The notes under the pieces were generated by a model that saw only the letters and a list, made by a program, of their open reading frames with translations, was not told the origin of the DNA and did no database searches. From assembly GCF_037892605.1 (NCBI RefSeq), contig NZ_JBBKTU010000001.1, positions 496,001-560,000 on the forward strand: a stretch of DNA of 64,000 nucleotides, written 5' to 3'. The DNA comes from Lacibacter sp. H407. Lineage in GTDB: Bacteria; Bacteroidota; Bacteroidia; Chitinophagales; Chitinophagaceae. Made by a program: the position numbers and the translations under genes. Below, one piece after another: positions 11,270-24,420 of the stretch (positions within the stretch are counted from its first letter, which is position 1; the number at the start of each line of letters is the position of its first letter).

Positions 11270-11438
11270 GTTTTTGTTTTGGCCCATTCGCTTTTCTCAA
11301 TAATTCCCCTATCTTTATAGAGTTAATGTGAATTCAGTCCATGCTTTCTGACCTGCAAGGTGCTTTTCGCTCGATCAGTTTCCCCGGTTTCAGTTGCTAT
11401 CTCTGGTTCATGATTTTTGTTTTTTTAATTTATTTTTT

Positions 11439-11855
11439 GTGAACATTTACGTAGGAAACCTGGCTTGGTCCATGACGAACGAAGACCTCGCTGCCCTGTT
11501 TGAGCAATTTGGCGCAGTAACCTCTGCCAAAATTTTAACCGACAAATTTTCTGGCCGTAGCAAGGGTTTTGCATTTGTTGAAATGGACAATGCAGAAGAA
11601 GCGCAAGCTGCAATCAGCCAACTGAACGACACAGATGTTCAGGGACGCAAGATCGTAGTGAACGAAGCTCAGCCTAAGAAAGATGATGGCGGATTTAAAA
11701 AGCGCAGCTTCGGCGGCGGTGGAGGCGGTGGCTTCCGCGGCGGTAGTGGCGGTGGCGGCGGCTACAAAGGTGGCGGCGGCGGTGGCGGCTACAAAGGTGG
11801 CGGCGGTGGCGGCTACAAAGGTGGCGGCGGCGGCGGTTATAACAGAGATTATTAA
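11439..11855 (+). CDS. RRM-type RNA-binding protein with glycine-rich tail
   Basis: A 138-residue single-RRM protein. The RRM occupies residues 1-80: RNP2 IYVGNLAW at 3-10 and RNP1 KGFAFVEM near 42-49. The tail (about 90-138) is nearly all glycine with three YKGGGGG-type repeats ending YNRDY. Such proteins resemble the cold-induced Rbp proteins of cyanobacteria and plant glycine-rich RNA-binding proteins, suggesting an RNA chaperone role. The start is a GTG (11439-11441), since the RRM begins there; the open frame upstream is T-rich leader. A perfect terminator follows. Confidence 0.88.
   Translation: MNIYVGNLAWSMTNEDLAALFEQFGAVTSAKILTDKFSGRSKGFAFVEMDNAEEAQAAISQLNDTDVQGRKIVVNEAQPKKDDGGFKKRSFGGGGGGGFRGGSGGGGGYKGGGGGGGYKGGGGGGYKGGGGGGYNRDY
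11751..11849 (+). repeat. Tandem coding repeat for the Gly-Tyr-Lys tail
   Basis: GCTACAAAG recurs at 11761, 11788 and 11812 within GGTGGCGGC-type triplets, giving units of 27 and 24 bases. The unequal units suggest slippage and probable length variation between strains. Confidence 0.75.
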
Positions 11856-12053: not shown

Positions 12054-12938
12054 TTATTCGCCAGCCGGTTGAGGGCCTTTTACAATTCCCATCTTTGCTT
12101 CAATACTCAATGTAGCATGCGGAACGGCACGTAAACGGGCTTTGTCGATCAGCTTACCGGTTACACGGCACACACCATAAGTTTTATTTTCGATCCGCAT
12201 CAACGCTTTTTCAAGGTGATCGATATAAGTGATCTGGCGACTTGCCATTTGACTCAGTTGCTCACGTTCCATACTTACACTTCCATCTTCCATGGTCATG
12301 TAGCGGCCATCATCACCATCGCCACCCATATCATCTTTACGGGTAATTAATCCCTGCAGATAACCAAGTTCTTTTTTCGCCGCTTCGTGTTTCCGTTGGA
12401 TCAGTTCTTTAAACTCAACCAGGTCAGCATCACTGTAACGAACCATTGGACCTTGCGGTGTTTCCACTACATTTTTATCAAGTACCGACTTTGTAAAATC
12501 AGGTTGATAACGCACAGAAGTAGATACGGAGGTTTTTATCGGCTTTACTTCTTTCGGCGGAGCCGGCTTTTTTGCTTCTTTTTTCAAATCTTTAATCGCT
12601 TGTTTAACGGTGGGTTTAATAGCGCTGTCTGGTTTTACAACCGGTGCAGGCGTTTTTACTTCTGGCTTAGCAACCGCCTTTGGCGCAACTGGCTTTACTG
12701 CCGGTTTCGCTACAGGCTTAGGAGCTGGTTTGGCCGCTTTGGCGGGCGCTTTAGGAGCTGCCTTCGGTGCTGCTTTTTTAGGAGCTGCCTTCTTTACTGC
12801 TGGCTTAGCAACCGCTTTTTTAGGAGCTGGCTTTTTTGCAGCCGGGGCAGGTTTCGCCGTTTTTTTAGCGGCGGGTTTTGCAGCCGGTTTTGCCGCTTTC
12901 TTTGGAGCAGGCTTTGCTGCTTTCTTTTTGATTGCCAT
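12054..12938 (-). CDS. DksA/TraR-like protein with Lys/Ala/Pro-rich histone-H1-like N-tail
   Basis: A 294-residue fusion. Residues 1-115 are almost only Lys, Ala, Pro and Val (AKPAPKKAAKPAAKP-type repeats), like bacterial histone H1-like DNA-binding tails. Residues 165-290 match the DksA/TraR fold: a coiled coil (DADLVEFKELIQRKHEAAKKEL), an acidic DGRYMTMEDGS segment and the C-terminal YGVCRVTGKLIDKARLRAVP. The four zinc-binding cysteines of classic DksA are reduced to one. DksA proteins enter the RNA polymerase secondary channel; here the tail suggests added DNA or RNA binding (inference). It follows ileS with a Shine-Dalgarno site inside the ileS end. The antisense open frames are shadows of the biased composition. 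Confidence 0.85.
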   Translation of the reverse strand: MAIKKKAAKPAPKKAAKPAAKPAAKKTAKPAPAAKKPAPKKAVAKPAVKKAAPKKAAPKAAPKAPAKAAKPAPKPVAKPAVKPVAPKAVAKPEVKTPAPVVKPDSAIKPTVKQAIKDLKKEAKKPAPPKEVKPIKTSVSTSVRYQPDFTKSVLDKNVVETPQGPMVRYSDADLVEFKELIQRKHEAAKKELGYLQGLITRKDDMGGDGDDGRYMTMEDGSVSMEREQLSQMASRQITYIDHLEKALMRIENKTYGVCRVTGKLIDKARLRAVPHATLSIEAKMGIVKGPQPAGE

Positions 12939-12939
12939 T

Positions 12940-15900
12940 CTATCCTCCTTTTTTGAGTACTTGTACTTTTATGGGAATATCGTTTATCTCAACTTCAGTG
13001 CCATCCAGTAAAGCTGGCGAAAAGTCAAGATCGTCTGCCAAAATTTCGGCGCAAATATAGGATTTAAATTGCGTGAATGACGGCCGGAGATTTTCGTTGT
13101 CGGAAACCAGCACGGTGATCCTGTCTGTCAGCTCAAAACCACTCTCTTTGCGGATTTTCTGAATGCGGTTCACCAGTTCCCGGGCATTGCCTTCGTTGAG
13201 CAATTCAGGACTGATGGTTACATCCAGCGCCACGGTTACGGCTCCCTTGTTGGTAACCATCCAGCCGGGCACATCCTCGCTTACAATTTCAACATCCGTC
13301 AAATATAGGGTAACCGTTTCATTATCAATTAACAGATTATAAACAGTTTCACGCTCAAATTGACTGATATTTTCCTGGCTGAATTGACCCAGTGCAGCCG
13401 ATACAGCTTTCATTTTTGCACCCATTTTTTTACCCAAAGCGATAAAGTTGGGCTTGATCTTCTTTTTGATGAAGGTATTATCTGCTGTGAGGTATTCGAT
13501 CTCTTTCACATTCACCTCGCTCATGATAATATCCTCCACTTTGCTGAATTGCTCCTTCATCCCATTGCTCAGCACTGGAATCAGGATTTTCTGCAAAGGC
13601 TGACGCACCTTGATGTTTACTTTTTTACGGAGCGACAACACCAGCGAAGAGGCATCTTGCGCCAATTGCATGCGTTCTTCCAGTGCAGCATCGATCACTG
13701 ATTCGTTGGCAACGGGGAAATCAACATGATGAACAGAAGCTGCATTGAACCTGCCGCTTACTTTGTTCAGCTCGCTGAAAATTGCATCGCTGAAGAATGG
13801 AGAAACCGGTGCCATTAAACGAAGCACAGTTTCAACACACTTATACAAAGTTTGGTAAGCACTGATCTTATCCTGCTCATACTCTCCTTTCCAGAAGCGT
13901 CGGCGGCACAAACGCACATACCAGTTGCTTAAATGTTCATCAACAAATTCTTCGATCAATCGACCAGCTTGTGTTGGTTCGTAATCATCCATTGCCTCAG
14001 TCACTTTTTTAATGAGTGTGTGAAGCGATGATAAGATCCATTGATCGATCTCTGGTCGTTCTTTTACGGGAATAGCTGCTTCTTTAAACGCAAAGCCATC
14101 CACATTTGCATACAGTGCGAAGAACTGATACGTATTATAAAGCGTACCAAAGAATTTGCGTTGCACTTCTTTGATGCCTTCAATATCAAATTTCAAATTA
14201 TCCCAAGGCGATGCATTGGTGATGAGATACCAGCGTGTAGCATCAGCACCAAACTTTTCAATAGTTTCAAACGGGTTCACCACGTTGCCGAGGCGTTTAC
14301 TCATTTTGTTACCATTCTTATCTAACACCAAGCCATTACTTACAACAGTTTTGTAAGCAACACTATCATATACAAGTGATGCAATTGCATGCAGTGTATA
14401 GAACCAACCACGTGTTTGATCCACACCTTCCGCAATAAAACTTGCAGGATAGAGATCTTCAAATTTGTTTACACCTGCAGGAAGTTTAAACGGATACTTG
14501 TCTCCGTTTTTTACTTTCTCATGATCGAGTCCCCATTGGGCATAAGGCATGGCACCACTATCGAACCAAACATCAATTAAGTCTGGTACACGTTTCATGG
14601 GTTTGCCGCTTGCGCTGATAAGAACAATCTCATCCACATACGGTTTATGTAAATCGATATCGTTGCCTAAATATTTTGCGTTTTTGGTGCCAAGTGTTGC
14701 ATCTGCTTTTGCTGCATTTTCTTTTAACTCTTCAACAGTACCAATACAGATTTCTTCTTCACCATCTTCTGTTTTCCAGATGGGCAATGCAGTTCCCCAG
14801 AAACGTGAACGACTCAAGTTCCAATCAACCATGTTCTCTAACCAGTTGCCAAAGCGACCTTCGCCTGTTGACTTTGGTTTCCAGTTGATGGTTTTATTCA
14901 ACTCCACCATCCTGTCTTTGATAGCAGTGGTTTTGATAAACCATGCATCTAACGGATAGTACAAAATTGGTTTATCAGTTCGCCAGCAATGCGGATAACT
15001 GTGTTCGTATTTTTCAACTTTAAATGCTCTGTTCTCTTTCTTTAGTTTTACACAGATGTCAACATTCACATCTACATAATCTTTCTCGTCTTTGTAATTT
15101 TTTACATAACGGTTGCTGAATTCACCCAAGCCATCAAGGAACTTTCCTTCACGATCAACCATGGTTAAGATACCAATATTGTATTTCTTACCTACACGAT
15201 AATCGTCTGCACCAAATGCAGGTGCAGTATGAACGATACCGGTACCATCTTCTGTTGTAACAAAATCACCGATCAATACACGGAATGGATCAGCATCAGG
15301 TGTAATGCGTTTAACTTCTTCAATGCTGTTTGCTTCATAAGGCAGGAGTTGCTCGTAATGCAATCCTTCCAGTTGTAAACCTTTAAATGAAGTGATGATC
15401 TTCCATGGAAGAATTTTCTGTTCACCATTGTAGCCTTCAAAGTCTCCATTCTCTCCTTCTGCTTTCAAATATTTATGAACGAGATCTTTCGCCAACACAA
15501 TGTTCACCGGCAAGTGTGTGTAGGGGTTGAAGGTTTGTACCAACACATATTCAATGTGTGGCCCAACTGTTAAGCCGAGGTTACTTGGCAATGTCCATGG
15601 CGTGGTAGTCCATGCCATAAAGAACACTTCTGCACCATGTACTGCATCATGCAAAATTTTACTTTGCTCATCTTGCCTTGCACGGAACATCACGGTTGCA
15701 CTGGTATCTTTTACATCTTTATAAGTGCCGGGCTGGTTCAATTCATGACTACTTAAACCTGTACCTGCTGCAGGTGAGTATGGTTGAATGCTTACGCTTT
15801 CGTACAACAATCCTTTTTTGTACAATTGCTGCAACAACCACCACAATGTTTCAATGTAACTATTTTCGAAGGTGATGTATGGATCATTCAGATCAACCCA

Positions 15901-16326
15901 GTAACCCATCTTCTTCGTGATCTCATCCCATTTGTCTTTATAACGCAACACCGCTTCACGGCATTTCTTATTGTATTCTTCAACGGTGATCTTAACACCA
16001 ATATCTTCTTTGGTAATACCCAATTCTTTCTCCACACCCAACTCGATCGGCAAACCATGGGTATCCCAACCGCCTTTGCGTTTTACCTGGAAACCTTTCA
16101 TGGTTTTGTAGCGACAAACCAGATCCTTCAAGGTTCTTGAAATAACGTGGTGGATGCCGGGCATACCATTGGCGCTGGGCGGACCTTCGTAAAACACAAA
16201 GGGTACAGCGCCATTGCGTACTTCAATGCTCTTTTCAAATGCCTGTTCAGCATCCCATTTCGCCAATATTTCCTGCTCGATGGAAGGTAAATTCAGCTGC
16301 GAAAATTCTCTGTATTTAACGCTCAT
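12940..16326 (-). CDS. ileS: Isoleucine-tRNA ligase, type 2 (long form)
   Basis: IleRS attaches isoleucine to its tRNA and edits valine. The 1128-residue length and lack of a C-terminal zinc-binding tail fit the long, eukaryote-like type 2 group. The signature normally written HxGH reads GIHH here (residues 57-60, in PSANGMPGIHHVISR). The second signature KMSKR is intact in NGNKMSKRLGNVVNPFE near residue 690. The class I core GWDTHGLPIE and the editing domain (WTTTPWTLPSN) are present. Type 2 enzymes are generally mupirocin-resistant. The ATG at 16326 is preceded by a full -7 element. Confidence 0.97.
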   Translation of the reverse strand: MSVKYREFSQLNLPSIEQEILAKWDAEQAFEKSIEVRNGAVPFVFYEGPPSANGMPGIHHVISRTLKDLVCRYKTMKGFQVKRKGGWDTHGLPIELGVEKELGITKEDIGVKITVEEYNKKCREAVLRYKDKWDEITKKMGYWVDLNDPYITFENSYIETLWWLLQQLYKKGLLYESVSIQPYSPAAGTGLSSHELNQPGTYKDVKDTSATVMFRARQDEQSKILHDAVHGAEVFFMAWTTTPWTLPSNLGLTVGPHIEYVLVQTFNPYTHLPVNIVLAKDLVHKYLKAEGENGDFEGYNGEQKILPWKIITSFKGLQLEGLHYEQLLPYEANSIEEVKRITPDADPFRVLIGDFVTTEDGTGIVHTAPAFGADDYRVGKKYNIGILTMVDREGKFLDGLGEFSNRYVKNYKDEKDYVDVNVDICVKLKKENRAFKVEKYEHSYPHCWRTDKPILYYPLDAWFIKTTAIKDRMVELNKTINWKPKSTGEGRFGNWLENMVDWNLSRSRFWGTALPIWKTEDGEEEICIGTVEELKENAAKADATLGTKNAKYLGNDIDLHKPYVDEIVLISASGKPMKRVPDLIDVWFDSGAMPYAQWGLDHEKVKNGDKYPFKLPAGVNKFEDLYPASFIAEGVDQTRGWFYTLHAIASLVYDSVAYKTVVSNGLVLDKNGNKMSKRLGNVVNPFETIEKFGADATRWYLITNASPWDNLKFDIEGIKEVQRKFFGTLYNTYQFFALYANVDGFAFKEAAIPVKERPEIDQWILSSLHTLIKKVTEAMDDYEPTQAGRLIEEFVDEHLSNWYVRLCRRRFWKGEYEQDKISAYQTLYKCVETVLRLMAPVSPFFSDAIFSELNKVSGRFNAASVHHVDFPVANESVIDAALEERMQLAQDASSLVLSLRKKVNIKVRQPLQKILIPVLSNGMKEQFSKVEDIIMSEVNVKEIEYLTADNTFIKKKIKPNFIALGKKMGAKMKAVSAALGQFSQENISQFERETVYNLLIDNETVTLYLTDVEIVSEDVPGWMVTNKGAVTVALDVTISPELLNEGNARELVNRIQKIRKESGFELTDRITVLVSDNENLRPSFTQFKSYICAEILADDLDFSPALLDGTEVEINDIPIKVQVLKKGG
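12944..12949 (-). promoter_or_regulatory. Strong Shine-Dalgarno site for the DksA-like gene
   Basis: AGGAGG on the minus strand, 5 bases before the ATG at 12938. It is formed by the last Gly-Gly codons of ileS, whose TAG stop (12940-12942) ends one base before this ATG. Such sites are rare in this window, and the layout suggests translational coupling to ileS. Confidence 0.75.
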
Positions 16327-16480: not shown

Positions 16481-17854
16481 ATGCAATCCCAAATCGAAAA
16501 AACACAGGTTGAAAAATACAACCTGCCCGTACCCCGTTATACCAGTTACCCGACCGTTCCGGTTTGGAAGGAAGCCATTGATCTGGAGCAATGGAAACAA
16601 CAACTGCAACAACAATTCAACCTGCACAACAGCAAAAAAGGCATCAGCCTGTACATTCATCTCCCGTTTTGCGAATCGCTATGTACTTATTGCGGTTGCA
16701 ATAAAAAGATCACCACAAATCACAGCGTTGAAGAAGAATATCTCGATATGATCGAGAAAGAATTTGCATTATACCTTTCGCTGTTCATTGAAAAACCAGT
16801 GATACGTGAATTGCATTTAGGCGGCGGCACGCCAACATTCTTTTCGCCGGAAAACCTCAAACGACTGATCAATTTTATTACGGAACGCTCAACTGTTCAT
16901 CCCGATCATGAATTCAGCATTGAAGGTCACCCCAACAATACAACATTCGCACACCTTGAAACTTTGTGCAATCTTGGTTTCCGTCGCATCAGCTATGGTG
17001 TACAGGATAATGATCCTGAAGTACAGCGCATCATCAACCGCATTCAACCGATAGAAAATGTTCGCAGAGCAACGGCCGATGCAAGGGAAATCGGTTTTGA
17101 ATCGGTGAATTATGATCTGATCTACGGATTACCAAAACAGAGCTTGGAAAGTATTACACGCACCATTCAACAGGTTGTTGAGCTGCGACCCGACCGCATT
17201 GCGTTTTACAGCTATGCACATGTACCGTGGACCAGCAGAGGCCAGCGTTTGTTTGATGAAAATGATTTGCCAACGGCCGAAGAAAAATTACAACTGTATT
17301 TGAAAGGAAAAGAATTACTCACGGCGGCAGGTTATACCGACATTGGTATGGATCATTTTGCACTGCCGGATGATGCTTTGTTTAAAGCATGGAGTGATGG
17401 AAGTTTGCATCGCAACTTTATGGGTTATACCACACAACATACTTCGTTGCTGTTAGGATTGGGTGTATCCAGTATCAGTGATATTGGAACAGCCTTTGCG
17501 CAAAACAAGAAAACAATTCATGATTATTATGAATCGATTCAAAAAAATGAATTGCCTGTTTTCAAAGGTTATTTTTTGAACAAAGAAGATATCAGCTTTC
17601 GACGCTACATTCTTGCTATCAGTTGTAACGGGAAAACTAGTTTCCGGAAAGAAGACACCGAAGTGCTTACGGAATATACATTCCCGTTGTTGGAGCAATT
17701 AGCAGCAGATGGATTGGTTGAATGGGATGAACAAGGCTTAACCGTAACAACAAGTGGCCGGCAGTTTATCCGGAATATCTGCAGTGCATTTGATTTGTAC
17801 ATGCAGCGGAACAAACAGCGGAATGGAAAACAATTGTATAGTAAGGCGATCTGA
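16481..17854 (+). CDS. hemN: Oxygen-independent coproporphyrinogen III oxidase
   Basis: HemN is a radical SAM enzyme that decarboxylates coproporphyrinogen III to protoporphyrinogen IX without oxygen. The 457-residue protein begins with the HemN-specific VPRYTSYPTVPVW (residues 17-29). The 4Fe-4S motif CESLCTYCGC lies near residues 64-73 (CX3CX2C plus the extra HemN cysteine), followed by LHLGGGTPTFF, the SAM-binding glycine motif. The length and N-terminus mark a true HemN rather than a HemW. It lies 4 kb ahead of the main hem operon and complements hemF there. A near-consensus -7 (GAATTTTG, 16469-16476) lies 4 bases before the ATG. Confidence 0.95.
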   Translation: MQSQIEKTQVEKYNLPVPRYTSYPTVPVWKEAIDLEQWKQQLQQQFNLHNSKKGISLYIHLPFCESLCTYCGCNKKITTNHSVEEEYLDMIEKEFALYLSLFIEKPVIRELHLGGGTPTFFSPENLKRLINFITERSTVHPDHEFSIEGHPNNTTFAHLETLCNLGFRRISYGVQDNDPEVQRIINRIQPIENVRRATADAREIGFESVNYDLIYGLPKQSLESITRTIQQVVELRPDRIAFYSYAHVPWTSRGQRLFDENDLPTAEEKLQLYLKGKELLTAAGYTDIGMDHFALPDDALFKAWSDGSLHRNFMGYTTQHTSLLLGLGVSSISDIGTAFAQNKKTIHDYYESIQKNELPVFKGYFLNKEDISFRRYILAISCNGKTSFRKEDTEVLTEYTFPLLEQLAADGLVEWDEQGLTVTTSGRQFIRNICSAFDLYMQRNKQRNGKQLYSKAI

Positions 17855-17941
17855 TGATGAGTGATGAGTTTCTCGAACGAATCATTTTTATAGTTGACAG
17901 CGTTCAAATGATTTCATTAAATTAAACAAAATCCGGTAAGA

Positions 17942-18289
17942 TTATTTTGCACAATAACATCCATATCCCTGACTCTTCAGGTCATTAGCATCATTACAGG
18001 TTAAACCTTTTAGTTGTTTCGTTTCATAAATTGAATCCCGAATTGAAATTGTAACATTCGAATTCAGATATCTTTCCCTGAATTTGATAACAGAATCGTT
18101 GACAGCCTTATCTGTATCATAGTTAGTTAGGGAACAATATAGCTGCCTCTCAACAATCACACCGGACGCTGATTTTGCTTCTGCAATAGCACACCCCATG
18201 TTTCTATCACACAGACAAGAACAGTTACATGAATACATAAACAGACCGGTTATAACAGCAATTAGAGTCTTTGAAAAGTGATTATTCAT
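17942..18289 (-). CDS. Small cysteine-rich exported protein, probable lipoprotein
   Basis: I do not recognise this 115-residue protein. It starts with a basic and hydrophobic segment (MNNHFSKTLIAVITGLFMYSC), consistent with a lipoprotein signal whose lipid-bearing cysteine is at 21. Cysteines cluster at the N-terminus (CNCSCLCDRNMGC) and C-terminus (CNDANDLKSQGYGCYC), with one in the middle. This spacing suggests disulfides or metal binding after export, but neither can be shown. It faces hemN tail to tail and precedes hemJ on neither strand as an operon. Composition is close to its neighbours. Confidence 0.6.
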   Translation of the reverse strand: MNNHFSKTLIAVITGLFMYSCNCSCLCDRNMGCAIAEAKSASGVIVERQLYCSLTNYDTDKAVNDSVIKFRERYLNSNVTISIRDSIYETKQLKGLTCNDANDLKSQGYGCYCAK

Positions 18290-18448
18290 GTTAGCTACTT
18301 TCGTTTAAAGATAAGAATTGTTGCAAAAAAGTGATGGTGCTCAATTCTTAGAACTCTCTATACATATTCGAAATTACTTAATCGTTAATCTTTCTTGACA
18401 CCCAACTATTCCTTTGATTTTAAACTGCCCTAGTTGTTACAAATCGTA

Positions 18449-18991
18449 TTATTTTCGGATCAGTTTGTAAATCTTAATTGCACTCATCAGTAGCAATACA
18501 AACAACACAAGCCCAAGTATTCCCCACAATGCACTGAGGTTTTGTTTCACAACTACCAACATCACCACTGCAACTAAAAAGATCGTTGCTACTTCATTCC
18601 AGATACGGAGTTGCTGTGATGAATAATTGAATACACCTGCAGTTTGCTGTTTAAAGATTCTATGTAAGGAGAAATGATAGAGATATAAGAAAAGAACAAA
18701 GATGAGTTTGATGAGCATCCACCTTCCTGCCGGTTGAAACACAATTTCTGAGTAACCGCTTTCAAACAAAACCCATATTCCAAAGACCAATGTCAACACT
18801 GCTGATGGCCAGGTAATGCCATACCACAAACGTTTCATCATAATGCCAAACTGCTCCTGCAATACTTTGCGGCTCGTTTCATCTTTTGTATTTGCTTCAA
18901 CATTGTAAATAAAAAGCCGAGGCATGTAGAATAAACCCGCAAACCAAGTAACGATAAAGATGATATGGATGGCCTTAATGTATAAATACAT
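18449..18991 (-). CDS. hemJ: Protoporphyrinogen IX oxidase, HemJ type
   Basis: HemJ is a small membrane enzyme that oxidises protoporphyrinogen IX to protoporphyrin IX, the step before ferrochelatase. The 180-residue protein has four to five helices and begins with the family's YLYIKAIHIIFIVTWFAGLFYMPRLFIY (residues 2-29), including the conserved His in helix 1. Position next to hemH and the lack of any hemG or hemY in the window support the call. A CopD-like copper protein is the alternative label these sequences sometimes receive. It lies downstream of hemH on the same strand, across a repeat-filled 164-bp gap. Confidence 0.8.
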   Translation of the reverse strand: MYLYIKAIHIIFIVTWFAGLFYMPRLFIYNVEANTKDETSRKVLQEQFGIMMKRLWYGITWPSAVLTLVFGIWVLFESGYSEIVFQPAGRWMLIKLIFVLFLYLYHFSLHRIFKQQTAGVFNYSSQQLRIWNEVATIFLVAVVMLVVVKQNLSALWGILGLVLFVLLLMSAIKIYKLIRK

Positions 18992-18993
18992 GT

Positions 18994-19018
18994 GATGAGT
19001 GATGAATAATCAGTGATA
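18994..19018. repeat. Stutter repeat upstream of hemJ (TGATGAGT family)
   Basis: GTGATGAGTGATGAATAATC followed by AGTGAT. It uses the same words as the hemE-hemF gap (24421-24480) and the bases after hemN (17853-17868). Confidence 0.5.
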
Positions 19019-19020
19019 TT

Positions 19021-19111
19021 CTTCGTGTACTTTGTGTAGCCCTCTGTGTTCTTAGTGTTAACCATTTCAACCACAAAGTGCACAAAGAAATACCCCACAA
19101 AGTTCACAAAG
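19021..19111. repeat. Inverted array of CTTNGTG / CACAAAG heptamers
   Basis: Four CTTNGTG-like words at 19021, 19030, 19042 (CTCTGTG) and 19051 face four exact CACAAAG words at 19072, 19081, 19096 and 19105. Each set is two pairs with 9-base spacing, so the RNA or single-stranded DNA could fold into a long imperfect hairpin. It lies between hemH and hemJ. Confidence 0.75.
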
Positions 19112-19155
19112 TCAAAAACCAACTATATTCAGAATTACTTACAATAATAACCGTA

Positions 19156-20211
19156 TTAAGAAAGCACCATCTCTCTCTCCCCCTTCGCCACTCCTTCCAC
19201 ATAGTTTGCAATTGCTTCCACCCATAACGGATGCACATTCATACAAGGGATCATGGTATAAGTTTCACCGCCTGCTTCTTCAAACGTTTCTTTTCCACGT
19301 TCTGCAATTTCTTCCAATGTTTCCAGGCAATCACTTACAAATGCCGGACAAAGGATCAATAATTTTTTAATGCCTTCTTTTGGCATATCACGCAAACGAT
19401 AATCGGTATACGGTGTTAACCATTGTTCACCTGCCAATCTCGATTGGAACGATAAACTGTATTTATCTTTTGTTAAACCAAGTTTTGCAGCAATCAGTTC
19501 TGTTGTTACAAAACATTGATGACGGTAACAGGTTGCATGCGCTGTTGAAGACACATTGCAACAATCGCCTGTTTTTAAACAATGACTTTTTGTAGGATCT
19601 GATTTCTTTAAATGACTTTCTGGAATACCATGATAACTGAACAGAATGTGATCGTACTCCTGTTCAAGGTAAGGGCGAATATTTTCGGCCATCGCCGTGA
19701 TATAATGCTCTTCATTATAATAAGGCTTAATAAAACTCAGCTTAAACGGGTAGTTATTTTTTGCATGGATCTCTTTTGCACTCTCCACCGCCGTTTCGTA
19801 ACTACTCATGGCATAATGCGGATACAACGGTACAGCAATCACTTCATCCAATTCAGGGTTTTGTTCCAGCAAACGATCCAATGCGTATTTCACAGTGGGG
19901 TTGCCGTAACGCATCGCTATTTCGACTGGCATATCAACTTCTTTATCCAATGCATCACGGAGTTGCTTTGTGAGCACAATTAAAGGTGAACCTTCTTTAG
20001 TCCAAATAGTGCTGTACGCTTCTGCCGATTTTGGTGCACGAAAACGTGTAATAATTCCCTTCACCAGTAACAATCGCAACAGATATGGATAATCGATCAC
20101 ACGCTCATCCATCAAAAATTCGTTGAGGTAACGACGAACATCTTTTACTTCGGTTGAATCAGGTGAACCAAGATTCATTAACAGGATTCCTTTGCGTGTT
20201 GCTTTTTCCAT
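19156..20211 (-). CDS. hemH: Ferrochelatase
   Basis: HemH inserts ferrous iron into protoporphyrin IX. The protein of 351 residues opens GILLMNLGSPDS and carries the catalytic-histidine motif LFSYHGIPESHLKKSDP, the GDCCN cysteine segment and YSLSFQSRLAGEQWLTPYT. The frame extends upstream to 20250, but a full TAnnTTTG element at 20231-20238 would lie inside that extension, so I chose the ATG at 20211 (an ATG two codons earlier, 20217, is also possible). It is divergent from hemA and followed by hemJ. Annotation of function is firm. Confidence 0.96.
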   Translation of the reverse strand: MEKATRKGILLMNLGSPDSTEVKDVRRYLNEFLMDERVIDYPYLLRLLLVKGIITRFRAPKSAEAYSTIWTKEGSPLIVLTKQLRDALDKEVDMPVEIAMRYGNPTVKYALDRLLEQNPELDEVIAVPLYPHYAMSSYETAVESAKEIHAKNNYPFKLSFIKPYYNEEHYITAMAENIRPYLEQEYDHILFSYHGIPESHLKKSDPTKSHCLKTGDCCNVSSTAHATCYRHQCFVTTELIAAKLGLTKDKYSLSFQSRLAGEQWLTPYTDYRLRDMPKEGIKKLLILCPAFVSDCLETLEEIAERGKETFEEAGGETYTMIPCMNVHPLWVEAIANYVEGVAKGEREMVLS

Positions 20212-20230
20212 GTGCATTTTTACTGGTTTG

Positions 20231-20238
20231 CAAAAGTA
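20231..20238 (-). promoter_or_regulatory. TAnnTTTG -7 element of hemH
   Basis: TACTTTTG followed by C on the minus strand, 19 bases before the ATG at 20211. It sets the start of hemH and shares the 250-bp gap with the hemA promoter. Confidence 0.6.
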
Positions 20239-20426
20239 ACGGCAATACAAAACAAAAGTTCATTTTCCAAAGAAATCTGTATTAACTGTCGTTTTTTAAA
20301 GATGAACTGTAGTGCTTTTGCTACAAAGATTTCGTTGACAGCAAACAGTTGTTATCATGATAAAAATCAATGGGTAATATGACATTGCAATGACAGATTT
20401 TTTAGGTTCATAGTGCTGTCTGCAAC

Positions 20427-20434
20427 TACATTTG
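20427..20434 (+). promoter_or_regulatory. TAnnTTTG -7 element of the hemA operon
   Basis: TACATTTG followed by C, 27 bases before the hemA ATG. It is probably the main promoter for hemACDEFBL. Confidence 0.65.
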
Positions 20435-20461
20435 CGCTGTAGAATTTCTTACGATTAACAC

Positions 20462-21697
20462 ATGCACAGAACAGGCGCAAAAGACATATCAAAATTTTTT
20501 ATTGCGGGTATCAACTACCGCAAAACAGATGCATTGATCCGGGGTCAGTTTGCCGTAAATCCGGAACAATACAATACCATCCTGCAACTCGCACCTGATT
20601 TTGCTGTGCATGAATTCTTTTTGATCTCAACCTGTAACCGTACCGAGATCTATGGTTTTGCTGACAATGCCGATCAACTTATTCGCTTGCTTTGTACACA
20701 AACCGAAGGAACAGTTGAGCAATTCAGACAACTTTCTTATATCAAACAAGGCCAGGAAGCGATAAACCATCTTTTTACCGTAGGCGGTGGATTGGATTCG
20801 CAGATCCTCGGCGATTACGAAATTGTTGGACAGATCAAACAAGCTGCCAAGCTTGCCAAACAGCATGATCGTATCGATGCATTTACAGAGCGTTTGGTGA
20901 ATTGCATGTTACAATCTTCAAAAGCTATCAAGAACAATACAGCATTGAGCGATGGAACCGTTTCTGTTTCATTTGCTGCTGTGCAATATATCCGCAGACA
21001 TATCAAGGCAATTAAAAGCAAAAAGATATTGTTGCTGGGTACCGGTAAGTTTGGACGCAACACCTGCAAAAACTTAGTGGATTATCTCGGTACAAAAAAT
21101 ATAACGCTTATCAACCGCACGGAAGAGAAAGCAACAACGTTGGCTGAAGAATTAGGTTTGCAATCGGCTCCGTTAGAAGATTTGCAACAACATATTACAA
21201 CAGCCGATATCATCCTGGTAGCCACCAATGCGACAGAGCCTACCATTTTAAAATCGCACTTGGAAGGATTGAATCATAAACTCATTATTGATCTTTCTAT
21301 TCCGTACAATGTGGAGCAGTCGGCAAAGGAACTAGCCAACATCACACTTGTGAATGTGGATGAACTATCGAAGTTGAAAGACGAGACGTTGGCAATGCGT
21401 GAAGCTGAAGTGCCGAAAGCAAAAGCCATCATTGCCGAGCATATAGCTGAATTTATCGACTGGTACCAGATGCGTAAACATGTACCGGTATTAAAAGCGG
21501 TAAAAACAAAGCTGAAAGAAATACATACTTCCCCATTATACATAACTTTGCAACCGCATCATACAGCCTGCACCAAGACCGATGAAAAAATTCAACGGGT
21601 GATCAATGGCATGGCGTCAAAAATGAAGGAGCAAAACCAGCGTGGCTGTTATTATATTGAAGCCATCAATGAGTTTATTGCTACGGGCACAGACTAA
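20462..21697 (+). CDS. hemA: Glutamyl-tRNA reductase
   Basis: HemA reduces glutamyl-tRNA to glutamate-1-semialdehyde, the first committed step of C5-route heme synthesis. In its 411 residues are the nucleophile-cysteine motif STCNRTEIYGF (about 58-68), GGLDSQILGDYEIVGQ, and the NADPH-binding glycine motif KKILLLGTGKFG near 187. The C-terminal dimerisation helix follows MRKHVPVLKAVKTKL. It is first of seven colinear hem genes; hemC starts one base after its stop. Presence of hemA and hemL shows the C5 pathway rather than the Shemin route. Confidence 0.97.
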   Translation: MHRTGAKDISKFFIAGINYRKTDALIRGQFAVNPEQYNTILQLAPDFAVHEFFLISTCNRTEIYGFADNADQLIRLLCTQTEGTVEQFRQLSYIKQGQEAINHLFTVGGGLDSQILGDYEIVGQIKQAAKLAKQHDRIDAFTERLVNCMLQSSKAIKNNTALSDGTVSVSFAAVQYIRRHIKAIKSKKILLLGTGKFGRNTCKNLVDYLGTKNITLINRTEEKATTLAEELGLQSAPLEDLQQHITTADIILVATNATEPTILKSHLEGLNHKLIIDLSIPYNVEQSAKELANITLVNVDELSKLKDETLAMREAEVPKAKAIIAEHIAEFIDWYQMRKHVPVLKAVKTKLKEIHTSPLYITLQPHHTACTKTDEKIQRVINGMASKMKEQNQRGCYYIEAINEFIATGTD

Positions 21698-21698
21698 A

Positions 21699-22637
21699 AT
21701 GGGACAAATCATCCGCATTGGAACAAGAGAAAGTCAATTAGCAGTATGGCAGGCAACACAAGTAAAAGAATTGCTTGCCCAACATGGTTATACTGCTGAA
21801 TTAGTTTACATCAAAAGTGAAGGCGATATCGATTTAAAAACACCCTTATACGAAATGGGTGTGCAGGGCATTTTTACTCGTAGTCTTGATCTTGCTTTAC
21901 TCAACAATACAATTGATATTGCCGTGCATTCTATGAAAGATGTGCCAACACAATTACCAAAAGGAATTATACAAGCTGCGGTGTTACCACGAGGACCGGT
22001 GAAAGATCTGTTGGTGTGGAAAGGTGATTGGTCAATGGTGAATGGCGAATGGATCATGCCTGGAAAAGCAGAACAACAAATAGCAACAAGCAGCATTCGC
22101 AGAAAAGCGCAATGGTTAAATAAATTTCCATCATCACAAATTCATAACCTGCGTGGTAATGTAAATACACGTTTACGTAAGTTGAAAGAAGAAGATTGGG
22201 ATGGAGCTATTTTTGCTGCTGCAGGATTGGAACGCATTAACCTTCGTCCGGAAAATTCGATTGAATTAGATTGGATGTTACCAGCACCTGCACAAGGAGC
22301 CATCATGGTTGTTTGTCGGGAAGAAGATAGTTATGCATTGGATGCATGTGTTCATTTTAATGATGCGGATACTGACTTCTGCACAAAGATCGAACGTGAT
22401 TTTCTTCGTGCTTTAATGGGCGGTTGTTCTACTCCCATCAGCGCTTATGCAGAAATGAAAGATGATGAAATTCATTTTAAAGGAAATATTTTATCGCTCG
22501 ATGGAAAACAAAAAGCAGAATTTGAAATTACCATGCCGGTGTGGGAAGCAACAGACATGGGTTCTTATGCAGCCGAACAAATTTTGAATCATGGCGGACA
22601 AGCCATCGCAGACAGTATTCAACATGCAGCAAAATAA
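21699..22637 (+). CDS. hemC: Hydroxymethylbilane synthase
   Basis: HemC joins four porphobilinogens into hydroxymethylbilane. The 312-residue protein begins IIRIGTRESQLAVWQA and has HSMKDVPTQLP, IATSSIRRKAQ, HNLRGNVNTRL and the dipyrromethane-cofactor cysteine in MGGCSTPISAYAE. The start is the ATG one base after the hemA stop; the longer open frame inside hemA is ignored. Between LLV and IATSS lies a Trp-rich stretch (WKGDWSMVNGEWIMPG) with no counterpart in typical HemC, whose DNA resembles an intergenic stutter repeat. The active-site parts are intact, so the enzyme should work. Confidence 0.96.
   Translation: MGQIIRIGTRESQLAVWQATQVKELLAQHGYTAELVYIKSEGDIDLKTPLYEMGVQGIFTRSLDLALLNNTIDIAVHSMKDVPTQLPKGIIQAAVLPRGPVKDLLVWKGDWSMVNGEWIMPGKAEQQIATSSIRRKAQWLNKFPSSQIHNLRGNVNTRLRKLKEEDWDGAIFAAAGLERINLRPENSIELDWMLPAPAQGAIMVVCREEDSYALDACVHFNDADTDFCTKIERDFLRALMGGCSTPISAYAEMKDDEIHFKGNILSLDGKQKAEFEITMPVWEATDMGSYAAEQILNHGGQAIADSIQHAAK
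22021..22053 (+). repeat. Stutter-type repeat inside hemC
   Basis: Heptamer-like units GGTCAAT, GGTGAAT, GGCGAAT run in tandem. TGGTCAATGGTGAAT (22029-22043) differs by one base from 8969-8983 in the rbfA-permease gap. The stretch is in frame and encodes part of the GDWSMVNGEW segment. Confidence 0.6.
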
Positions 22638-23325
22638 AATCAACATACTATCTACACGGCCACTGAATAAATCATTGGTACACGAAGCGAAGGCTGTGGG
22701 CATTTCGATCGATGAATTATCATTCATTGACACAGAACCGATACAAGACATCGCCACACAACAGGAAATTGAACAGGCCTATCTGCAATCGTCCACTGTT
22801 GTATTCACCAGCATGAACGCAGTGGATGCCGTACTTGCCTGGCAAGACGGACAACAACCTGATTGGGTAATTTATTGCATGGGCAATACCACCAAACTAT
22901 TGTTGAAGGAAAATTTTGGAGAACACAGTGTTGCCGGAACTGCCGGCTATGCTGCAGAATTAGCTGAACTGATTGCAGAAGAAAGTGATATCGATGAAGT
23001 GGTTTTCTTTTGCGGCGAACAACGCAGAGATGAATTGCCAGCTATTCTACGGAGTAAAGGAATTGAAGTACATGAAATTTTTGTGTACGAAACCATCCAC
23101 ACACCACACAAGGTCAGCAAAGACTATCATGCTATTTTATTCTACAGTCCAAGTGCGGTGAGCAGTTTTTTCAGCAACAATAAAGTACCTGCGCAAACAA
23201 TTTTGTTTGCCATTGGTAATACTACAGCAAAAACGATTCAACAATATTGTAACAATACCATCATCATTGGCAAAGAACCGGGGAAAGAAGAACTGGTAAG
23301 GCAGGCGATGGAGTATTTCAGCTAG
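22624..23325 (+). CDS. hemD: Uroporphyrinogen-III synthase
   Basis: HemD closes hydroxymethylbilane with inversion of ring D to give uroporphyrinogen III. HemD proteins are poorly conserved; the call rests on NKINILSTRPLNKSLVHEA at the start, VVFTSMNAVDAV near 55-66, a FFCGEQRRDELPAIL segment, ILFYSPSAVSSFF in the second half and AIGNTTAKTIQQ near the end, in the expected order, plus position between hemC and hemE. The protein is 233 residues. The ATG overlaps the end of hemC by 14 bases, which implies coupled translation. Confidence 0.9.
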   Translation: MQQNKINILSTRPLNKSLVHEAKAVGISIDELSFIDTEPIQDIATQQEIEQAYLQSSTVVFTSMNAVDAVLAWQDGQQPDWVIYCMGNTTKLLLKENFGEHSVAGTAGYAAELAELIAEESDIDEVVFFCGEQRRDELPAILRSKGIEVHEIFVYETIHTPHKVSKDYHAILFYSPSAVSSFFSNNKVPAQTILFAIGNTTAKTIQQYCNNTIIIGKEPGKEELVRQAMEYFS

Positions 23326-23391
23326 TGGAAAGTAGTAATTGGCAAGTAGTATCACTCGCTACTCACCACTAACCACTCACAACTATTTATT
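23326..23391. repeat. Stutter-type repeat filling the hemD-hemE gap
   Basis: The gap has two AAGTAGT words (23330-23336, 23344-23350) followed by CTACTCACCACTAACCACTC, whose reverse strand reads as tandem GTGAGT/GTTAGT-like units. No terminator or promoter is seen. Confidence 0.5.
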
Positions 23392-24420
23392 ATGACTCAA
23401 CTAAAGAACGATTTATTATTAAAAGCACTCAGAGGAGAAGCCGTAGAACGCCCACCGGTATGGATGATGCGACAGGCAGGAAGATATTTACCTGATTATA
23501 TTAAGCTCCGGCAGAAATATGATTTCTTCACCCGTTGTCAAACACCGGAGCTTGCAACTGAAATTACCTTGCAACCGGTTGACCAGGTTGGTGTAGATGC
23601 AGCCATTATCTTCAGTGATATTCTCGTGATACCACAAGCAATGGGTGTTGAAGTATTGATGGAAGAAGGTAAAGGACCGTCATTACCAAAAACAATTGCC
23701 ACGCAAAAAGATATTGATGCATTGATCACAACAGGTGCTGAAGAAAGTTTGAAGTATGTGTATGATGCGTTGGCATTAACCAAAAGAGAATTGAATGGTC
23801 GTGTACCATTGATCGGTTTTGCAGGTGCACCTTGGACCATTCTTTGTTATATGGTGGAAGGGAAAGGAAGCAAAACATGGGATAAAGCAAAACAGTTTGC
23901 ATACACACAACCTGCAATGGCACATCAACTTTTGCAAAAGATCACTGACATTACAATTGTTTATTTAAAGCACCAGGTGAAAGCAGGTGCAGACACCGTA
24001 CAGGTATTTGATAGCTGGGCAGGTTCATTATCGCCAGCTGATTTCAAATTATTTGCACAACCTTATTTATTCCAGATCGCTGAAGCGTTGAAAGACGACG
24101 CACCTGTGATCTTATTTCCGAAAGGAACATGGCATGCGTTGAAAGAGATCAGCGAAAGTGCTGCAAGTGGTGTGGGTATCGATTGGTGCATTACACCACA
24201 AATGGCAAGAGAGTTTACACAGAATAAGATCACCATTCAGGGTAACTTTGATCCGGCGAAATTATTAGCTCCTATTCCTGAGATCAGGAAAGCAGTGAAG
24301 GAAATGATCGATGCATTTGGAACCCAACGATACATTGCCAACTTAGGTCATGGTATTACACCCAATGTACCGGTTGATCATGCAAGAGCATTTGTTGATG
24401 CTGTGAAGGAATACAAATAA
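23392..24420 (+). CDS. hemE: Uroporphyrinogen decarboxylase
   Basis: HemE removes four carboxyl groups from uroporphyrinogen III to give coproporphyrinogen III. The 342-residue protein carries [16 protein letters not shown] (residues 21-36), [15 protein letters not shown] with the catalytic aspartate, [27 protein letters not shown] and the C-terminal [14 protein letters not shown]. All hallmark motifs are intact. It is flanked on both sides by stutter-type repeats, yet in the same direction as the rest of the operon. Confidence 0.97.

What the first reader, a model, noticed from the sequence alone, without database searches (positions are those of the whole stretch)
16147..16158. IleRS with swapped class I signature, GIHH instead of HxGH
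In the sequence, residues 57-60 of this 1128-residue IleRS read G-I-H-H at the position where class I synthetases have H-x-G-H (neighbouring PSANGMP and GWDTHGLP fix the register). A GXHH variant is known in a subset of type 2 IleRS and has been linked to very strong resistance to mupirocin. If so, this organism should be highly resistant, and the enzyme uses an altered active site while KMSKR is intact.
Basis: partly seen in the sequence, partly recalled or inferred. Interest (0 to 1): 0.7.

Follow-up and report, generated by a model that had tools for sequence, protein, structure and literature searches.

The report
Ordinary Bacteroidota isoleucyl-tRNA synthetase, swapped motif
The sequence really does encode an isoleucine-charging enzyme whose class-defining active-site motif has two residues swapped, but this swap is already published, was found in every relative from the same phylum whose motif was read, and probably makes the enzyme hard to inhibit with the antibiotic mupirocin.

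Summary
Residues 57-60 (window 16147-16158, minus strand) of the 1128-residue IleRS read GIHH, exactly in the HxGH columns; the protein holds no HxGH. It is a type 2 IleRS and the only IleRS found in its genome; four other class I synthetases examined there (named by motif context as ValRS, LeuRS, MetRS, CysRS) keep HxGH. The swap is not new: Brkic et al. 2023 (PMC10485003) described G/AXHH in 86 type 2 IleRSs, showed by motif exchange that it raises the mupirocin Ki up to about 1000-fold, and gave a structural mechanism. This survey adds distribution. The likely reading is an old, fixed trait of the phylum's housekeeping enzyme, not a peculiarity of this organism. High mupirocin resistance of the enzyme is likely but unmeasured. 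Interest is low; the open points are why the swap is not seen to revert and whether it also removes tRNA-dependent pre-transfer editing.

The parts
12940..16326 (-). ileS, type 2 isoleucyl-tRNA synthetase, 1128 aa, the only IleRS found in the genome
   Evidence: TIGR00392 1011.6 bits (cut-off 621.4); single match above cut-off in G000; best solved relatives are PmIleRS2
16147..16158 (-). GIHH, residues 57-60, at the class I HxGH position (first and third residues swapped)
   Evidence: G57, H59, H60 invariant in 41 aligned sequences
14293..14307 (-). KMSKR, residues 674-678 (second class I signature, KMSKS)
   Evidence: (K674, M675, K677 invariant; fifth position R 18, S 19, T 3, K 1 of 41)
14329..14337 (-). 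N-G-L, residues 664-666, at the presumed place of the HGF segment whose Phe stacks on mupirocin in S. aureus IleRS1 (correspondence inferred from spacing to KMSKS, not aligned here)
   Evidence: (L666 in 37 of 41); role of HGF read in PMC4861432 passages
15580..15606 (-). TTPWTLPSN, residues 241-249, editing-domain threonine-rich segment (name recalled)
   Evidence: (T241, T242, P243, W244, T245, N249 invariant in 41)
15202..15246 (-). GTGIVHTAPAFGADD, residues 361-375, editing-domain segment with Asp375
   Evidence: (D375 invariant in 41); equivalence to the Asp333/334 of PMC4861432 is inferred

Best explanation
This is the ordinary housekeeping isoleucyl-tRNA synthetase of a Chitinophagaceae bacterium, a type 2 IleRS of the published G/AXHH subgroup. 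[quoted passage not shown] isoleucine activation still works, and Gly57 takes the vacated place. The same His would clash with mupirocin, giving an expected Ki in the range from tens of micromolar to millimolar. Shown here: the sequence, its register, type 2 identity, single copy, and conservation in the sampled phylum. Inferred from published work on other enzymes: the role of His59 and the hyper-resistance. Inferred from conservation: the swap is old and fixed in the phylum.
For: Ungapped alignment with PmIleRS2 and its GVHH mutant. Type 2: phmmer 793-781 bits to the four PmIleRS2 entries and 710 to 1ile (T. thermophilus, organism recalled), against 323 (1ffy, S. aureus IleRS1) and 317 (8c9f, P. 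megaterium IleRS1 mutant); Foldseek ranks the four PmIleRS2 entries first (E 2.2e-100 to 1.2e-95) and IleRS1 entries from rank 13. Only one IleRS over the cut-off in a genome rated 100% complete. Four other class I synthetases of the genome keep the canonical motif: HMGH, HVGH, HVGH, HLGH. Published exchanges: DrIleRS2 ALHH Ki 6600 uM, 8.1 uM as HVGH; PmIleRS2 1.08 to 460 uM and TtIleRS2 0.20 to 35 uM on gaining GVHH (PMC10485003 Table 1).
Against: I found no Ki, kinetics or MIC for this enzyme or host. The size of the effect depends on background: the GVHH mutant of TtIleRS2 has a Ki of only 35 uM. Side-chain geometry at His59 was not inspected (no coordinates were returned). In four of six genomes of the class sample that I followed up for lacking a match, no IleRS was identified.
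Confidence: 0.93

Rival explanations
1. The swap is a specific, recent mupirocin-resistance adaptation of this organism or genus, selected by contact with mupirocin-producing Pseudomonas.
For: The authors of PMC10485003 and PMC4861432 propose antibiotic selection for such enzymes.
Against: It therefore appears far older than this genus.
Confidence: 0.03
2. GIHH marks a catalytically crippled or repurposed IleRS, with the real housekeeping enzyme elsewhere.
For: The first His of HxGH is catalytically important in canonical class I enzymes, and IleRS1 given GXHH is inactive (PMC10485003).
Against: No second IleRS in the genome; 197 of 198 phylum genomes have exactly one match at E<=1e-120, and the last has its gene cut by a contig end; the natural ALHH enzyme of D. 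radiodurans is active; the other active-site and editing segments that I checked are conserved.
Confidence: 0.02
3. Sequencing or assembly error, or a register mistake with an intact HxGH elsewhere.
For: None found.
Against: No HxGH in the protein; ungapped flanks; the same residues in independent genomes.
Confidence: 0.01

Closest known systems
G/AXHH subgroup of bacterial type 2 IleRS (Brkic et al. 2023, PMC10485003; natural examples Deinococcus radiodurans ALHH and Streptomyces griseus)
   Same: Type 2 enzyme, first and third motif residues swapped, KMSK retained; type 2 may be the sole IleRS of a genome.
   Different: Second residue Ile; fifth residue of KMSKS is Arg; enzyme uncharacterised; from Bacteroidota, a name not in the main text of that paper (find for 'Bacteroid' gave 0; its supplements were not available to me).
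Priestia megaterium IleRS2, wild type (8c8v, 8c8u) and laboratory GVHH mutant (8c8w)
   Same: Top matches in sequence and structure over nearly the full length, 36-37% identity; the mutant has the same swap.
   Different: The natural P. megaterium enzyme is canonical HVGH; the swap there is man-made.
Acquired MupA/MupB IleRS of staphylococci (host and type recalled)
   Same: IleRS linked to mupirocin resistance; same general family.
   Different: The window protein scores 778.6 and 760.7 bits, far under the curated cut-off of 1900, and is the chromosome's only IleRS.

Membership tests
Isoleucyl-tRNA synthetase (TIGR00392) | Profile score over the curated cut-off | tested here: met
   1011.6 bits against 621.4
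Type 2 IleRS | Closer to known type 2 than type 1 enzymes in sequence and fold | tested here: met
   phmmer about 790 against about 320 bits; Foldseek ranks 1-4 PmIleRS2, IleRS1 from rank 13. No tree was built.
Type 2 IleRS | Type 2 C-terminal domain without the C-terminal Cys4 cluster of type 1 | tested here: met
   Alignment to PmIleRS2 runs to query residue 1125, chain residue 1030; after residue 830 the only Cys is 1092; the Cys4 rule was read in a PMC4861432 passage
G/AXHH type 2 IleRS | Gly or Ala at position 1 and His at position 3 of the HxGH columns, no HxGH elsewhere | tested here: met
G/AXHH type 2 IleRS | Isoleucine activation retained | not testable with these tools
   Inferred only: sole IleRS found in a genome rated 100% complete
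G/AXHH type 2 IleRS | Mupirocin Ki about two to three orders above canonical type 2 enzymes | not testable with these tools
   Published for other enzymes only
MupA / MupB acquired IleRS | Score over the NF000257 or NF000258 cut-off | tested here: not met
   778.6 and 760.7 against 1900

The most novel reading that the evidence does not exclude
[quoted passage not shown] griseus enzyme, so that the phylum relies on post-transfer editing alone.
Probability: 0.3. Interest if true: 0.45.

Novelty: new member of a known kind. Interest (0 to 1): 0.18.

Why it matters
The motif and its effect on mupirocin are published, so this case mainly widens the record: an essential enzyme of a large phylum carries the altered signature in every sequence read here. 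If that holds, it predicts target-level mupirocin resistance across Bacteroidota, suggests that drug exposure alone does not explain why the swap is kept, and offers many natural enzymes in which to test whether the swap and the loss of pre-transfer editing go together. It would also mean that resistome surveys that count such ileS genes as resistance genes may be counting ordinary housekeeping genes (inference; no such survey was examined).

Tried and rejected
Considered and rejected: register error (ungapped flanks, no other HxGH); a second IleRS in the genome; a genome-wide oddity of class I synthetases (the four others that the IleRS profile brought in are canonical; GluRS, ArgRS, TyrRS and TrpRS were not looked at); an acquired MupA/MupB gene.

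Led nowhere: looking for more reduced genomes near G219, whose family and order hold only that genome here. Literature on mupirocin MICs of Bacteroidota: five searches, of which I saw only the listings, showed no measurement; the two mupirocin passages of one listed paper, PMC6994654, give no MIC. No phylogenetic tree was built, and no co-variation test against canonical type 2 enzymes was run, too few HxGH type 2 sequences being at hand.

Results against a clean story: in the class sample 29 of 395 genomes had no match at E<=1e-120. I followed up 6 of those 29: G288 and G357 carry IleRS fragments with GIHH (L237, L234); for G236, G267, G278 and G385 no IleRS was identified, perhaps assembly gaps, unresolved. 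The other 23 were not looked at. Of 308 loci held, 42 showed no motif; they appear to be other synthetases or IleRS pieces without the N-terminus, but were not each checked. The genomes read were mostly those whose places the tool listed, that is the higher-scoring ones; about 368 of about 549 sampled genomes were not read.

Full report
What is there. The window lies in contig 1 of a 4.87 Mb genome in four contigs, rated 100% complete. The minus-strand ORF 12940-16326 encodes 1128 residues and matches the IleRS model TIGR00392 with 1011.6 bits against a cut-off of 621.4. Residues 57-60, window 16147-16158, are GIHH. The flanks align without gaps to P. megaterium IleRS2, so that GIHH stands in the columns of HVGH in entries 8c8v and 8c8u and of GVHH in the mutant entry 8c8w. 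There is no HxGH anywhere in the protein. KMSKR is at residues 674-678.

What kind of enzyme. The closest solved relatives are the four P. megaterium IleRS2 entries (793-781 bits), then 1ile (710; T. thermophilus, organism recalled) and eukaryotic cytosolic IleRS (628-534); S. aureus IleRS1 (1ffy) scores 323 and P. megaterium IleRS1 (8c9f) 317 (60 of 71 matches shown). An AlphaFold2 model from 41 sequences (mean pLDDT 89.6, pTM 0.79) has the PmIleRS2 entries as its best four Foldseek matches, with IleRS1 entries from rank 13 on. In the model GIHH is at the start of helix 58-76, as expected for the HIGH motif. The enzyme is therefore type 2. I did not inspect side chains and built no tree.

Copy number and specificity of the swap. 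The profile search found one IleRS over the cut-off in the whole genome; the seven other matches are under it. Four other class I synthetases among those matches keep the canonical motif: HMGH, HVGH, HVGH and HLGH. I name them ValRS, LeuRS, MetRS and CysRS from their length and recalled motif context, not from a profile. The remaining class I synthetases were not examined.

Relatives. All 80 read GIHH; in one, L063, the letters before the motif are altered (EGPSSAYG). I read the motif in 181 of them, own genome included: 170 GIHH, 11 GVHH, none HxGH (recounted by genome). In one search, 197 of 198 genomes have one match at E<=1e-120; in the remaining one, G176, the gene is cut by a contig end and its visible part reads GIHH. 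In one search, 366 of 395 have a match; the two with two matches (G261, G409) show complementary pieces on different contigs, consistent with one split gene. Of the 29 without a match I followed up six; two hold GIHH fragments and four gave no IleRS. At the motif, Gly57 uses four codons and the two His both of theirs, among 191 distinct stretches, so the amino acids are held while the codons drift. A 0.5 Mb genome, G219, rated 93% complete, also keeps GIHH (L223).

What is known. Brkic et al. 2023 (PMC10485003; I saw the abstract, sections 6, 7, 8 and 11 and found passages) analysed 379 IleRSs, counted 86 type 2 enzymes with G/AXHH and none among type 1, and exchanged the motif in both directions. 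DrIleRS2 (ALHH) has Ki 6.6 mM, and 8.1 uM when made canonical; PmIleRS2 and TtIleRS2 rose about 430-fold and 175-fold on the swap (from their Table 1). They propose that the third His takes over from the first and that it clashes with mupirocin. Cvetesic et al. 2016 (PMC4861432; passages only, parts of its abstract among them) measured Ki 10 mM for S. [quoted passage not shown] In two searches for other work on GXHH, only the 2023 paper held that term among the papers listed (20 of 244; all 5, which asked for two of four terms). The main text of neither paper contains 'Bacteroid'; their supplements were not available to me, so I do not claim that the phylum's place in the G/AXHH group is unpublished.

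Mechanism. By analogy, His59 serves the activation step in place of the usual first His, Gly57 fills the vacant place, and His59 blocks mupirocin. Position 666, which from its spacing to KMSKS should correspond to the Phe of the type 1 HGF segment, is Leu in 37 of 41 aligned sequences, a further expected loss of a mupirocin contact; the correspondence is inferred. The editing-domain segments that I checked are intact.

Reading of the distribution. If the swap served only against mupirocin, some reversion might be expected in lineages without exposure, as reported for Deinococcus-Thermus (PMC10485003). None was seen here, even in one strongly reduced genome. This fits fixation in or near the phylum's ancestor followed by entrenchment, but does not prove it: 261 sequences were read, the named and unnamed sets may overlap, the unnamed ones read are mostly the higher-scoring, and exposure histories are unknown.

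Verdict. Real, correctly read and correctly interpreted in outline; ordinary for its phylum; a new member of a known kind.

Noticed in passing
window 12054-12938 (-): Next to ileS, a 294-residue protein whose first 140 residues hold 108 Ala, Lys or Pro, a histone H1-like tail, ahead of a DksA/TraR-like domain that scores below the family cut-offs (41.3 bits against 115.5 for dksA) and has only one Cys, so the usual zinc cysteines (recalled) are mostly missing.
   Followed up: partly
window 11394-11855 (+): RRM-type RNA-binding protein (NF058537, 116.7 bits) with a Gly-rich tail of repeated GGGGYKGG-like units.
   Followed up: no
window 16481-24420: Heme biosynthesis genes follow on both strands: hemN, a hemJ-like gene (112.5 bits, under its cut-off of 138.05), hemH, hemA, hemC, a hemD-like gene (under its cut-offs), hemE.
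   Followed up: partly
L140 (genome G115, contig 10): A 205-residue open frame joins about the first 77 residues of a second IleRS, GIHH included, to a different sequence that I did not search; the same genome has a full-length ileS elsewhere. Rearrangement or assembly artefact.
   Followed up: partly
L063 (Chitinophaga sp. GbtcB8): EGPP.xNG before the motif, otherwise kept in the sequences read, is EGPSSAYG in this genome, with GIHH kept; sequencing error or real.
   Followed up: no
alignment A1, column of window residue 678: The fifth residue of KMSKS differs by lineage: R mainly in the window's class, S or T mainly in the other genomes of the phylum sample.
   Followed up: partly
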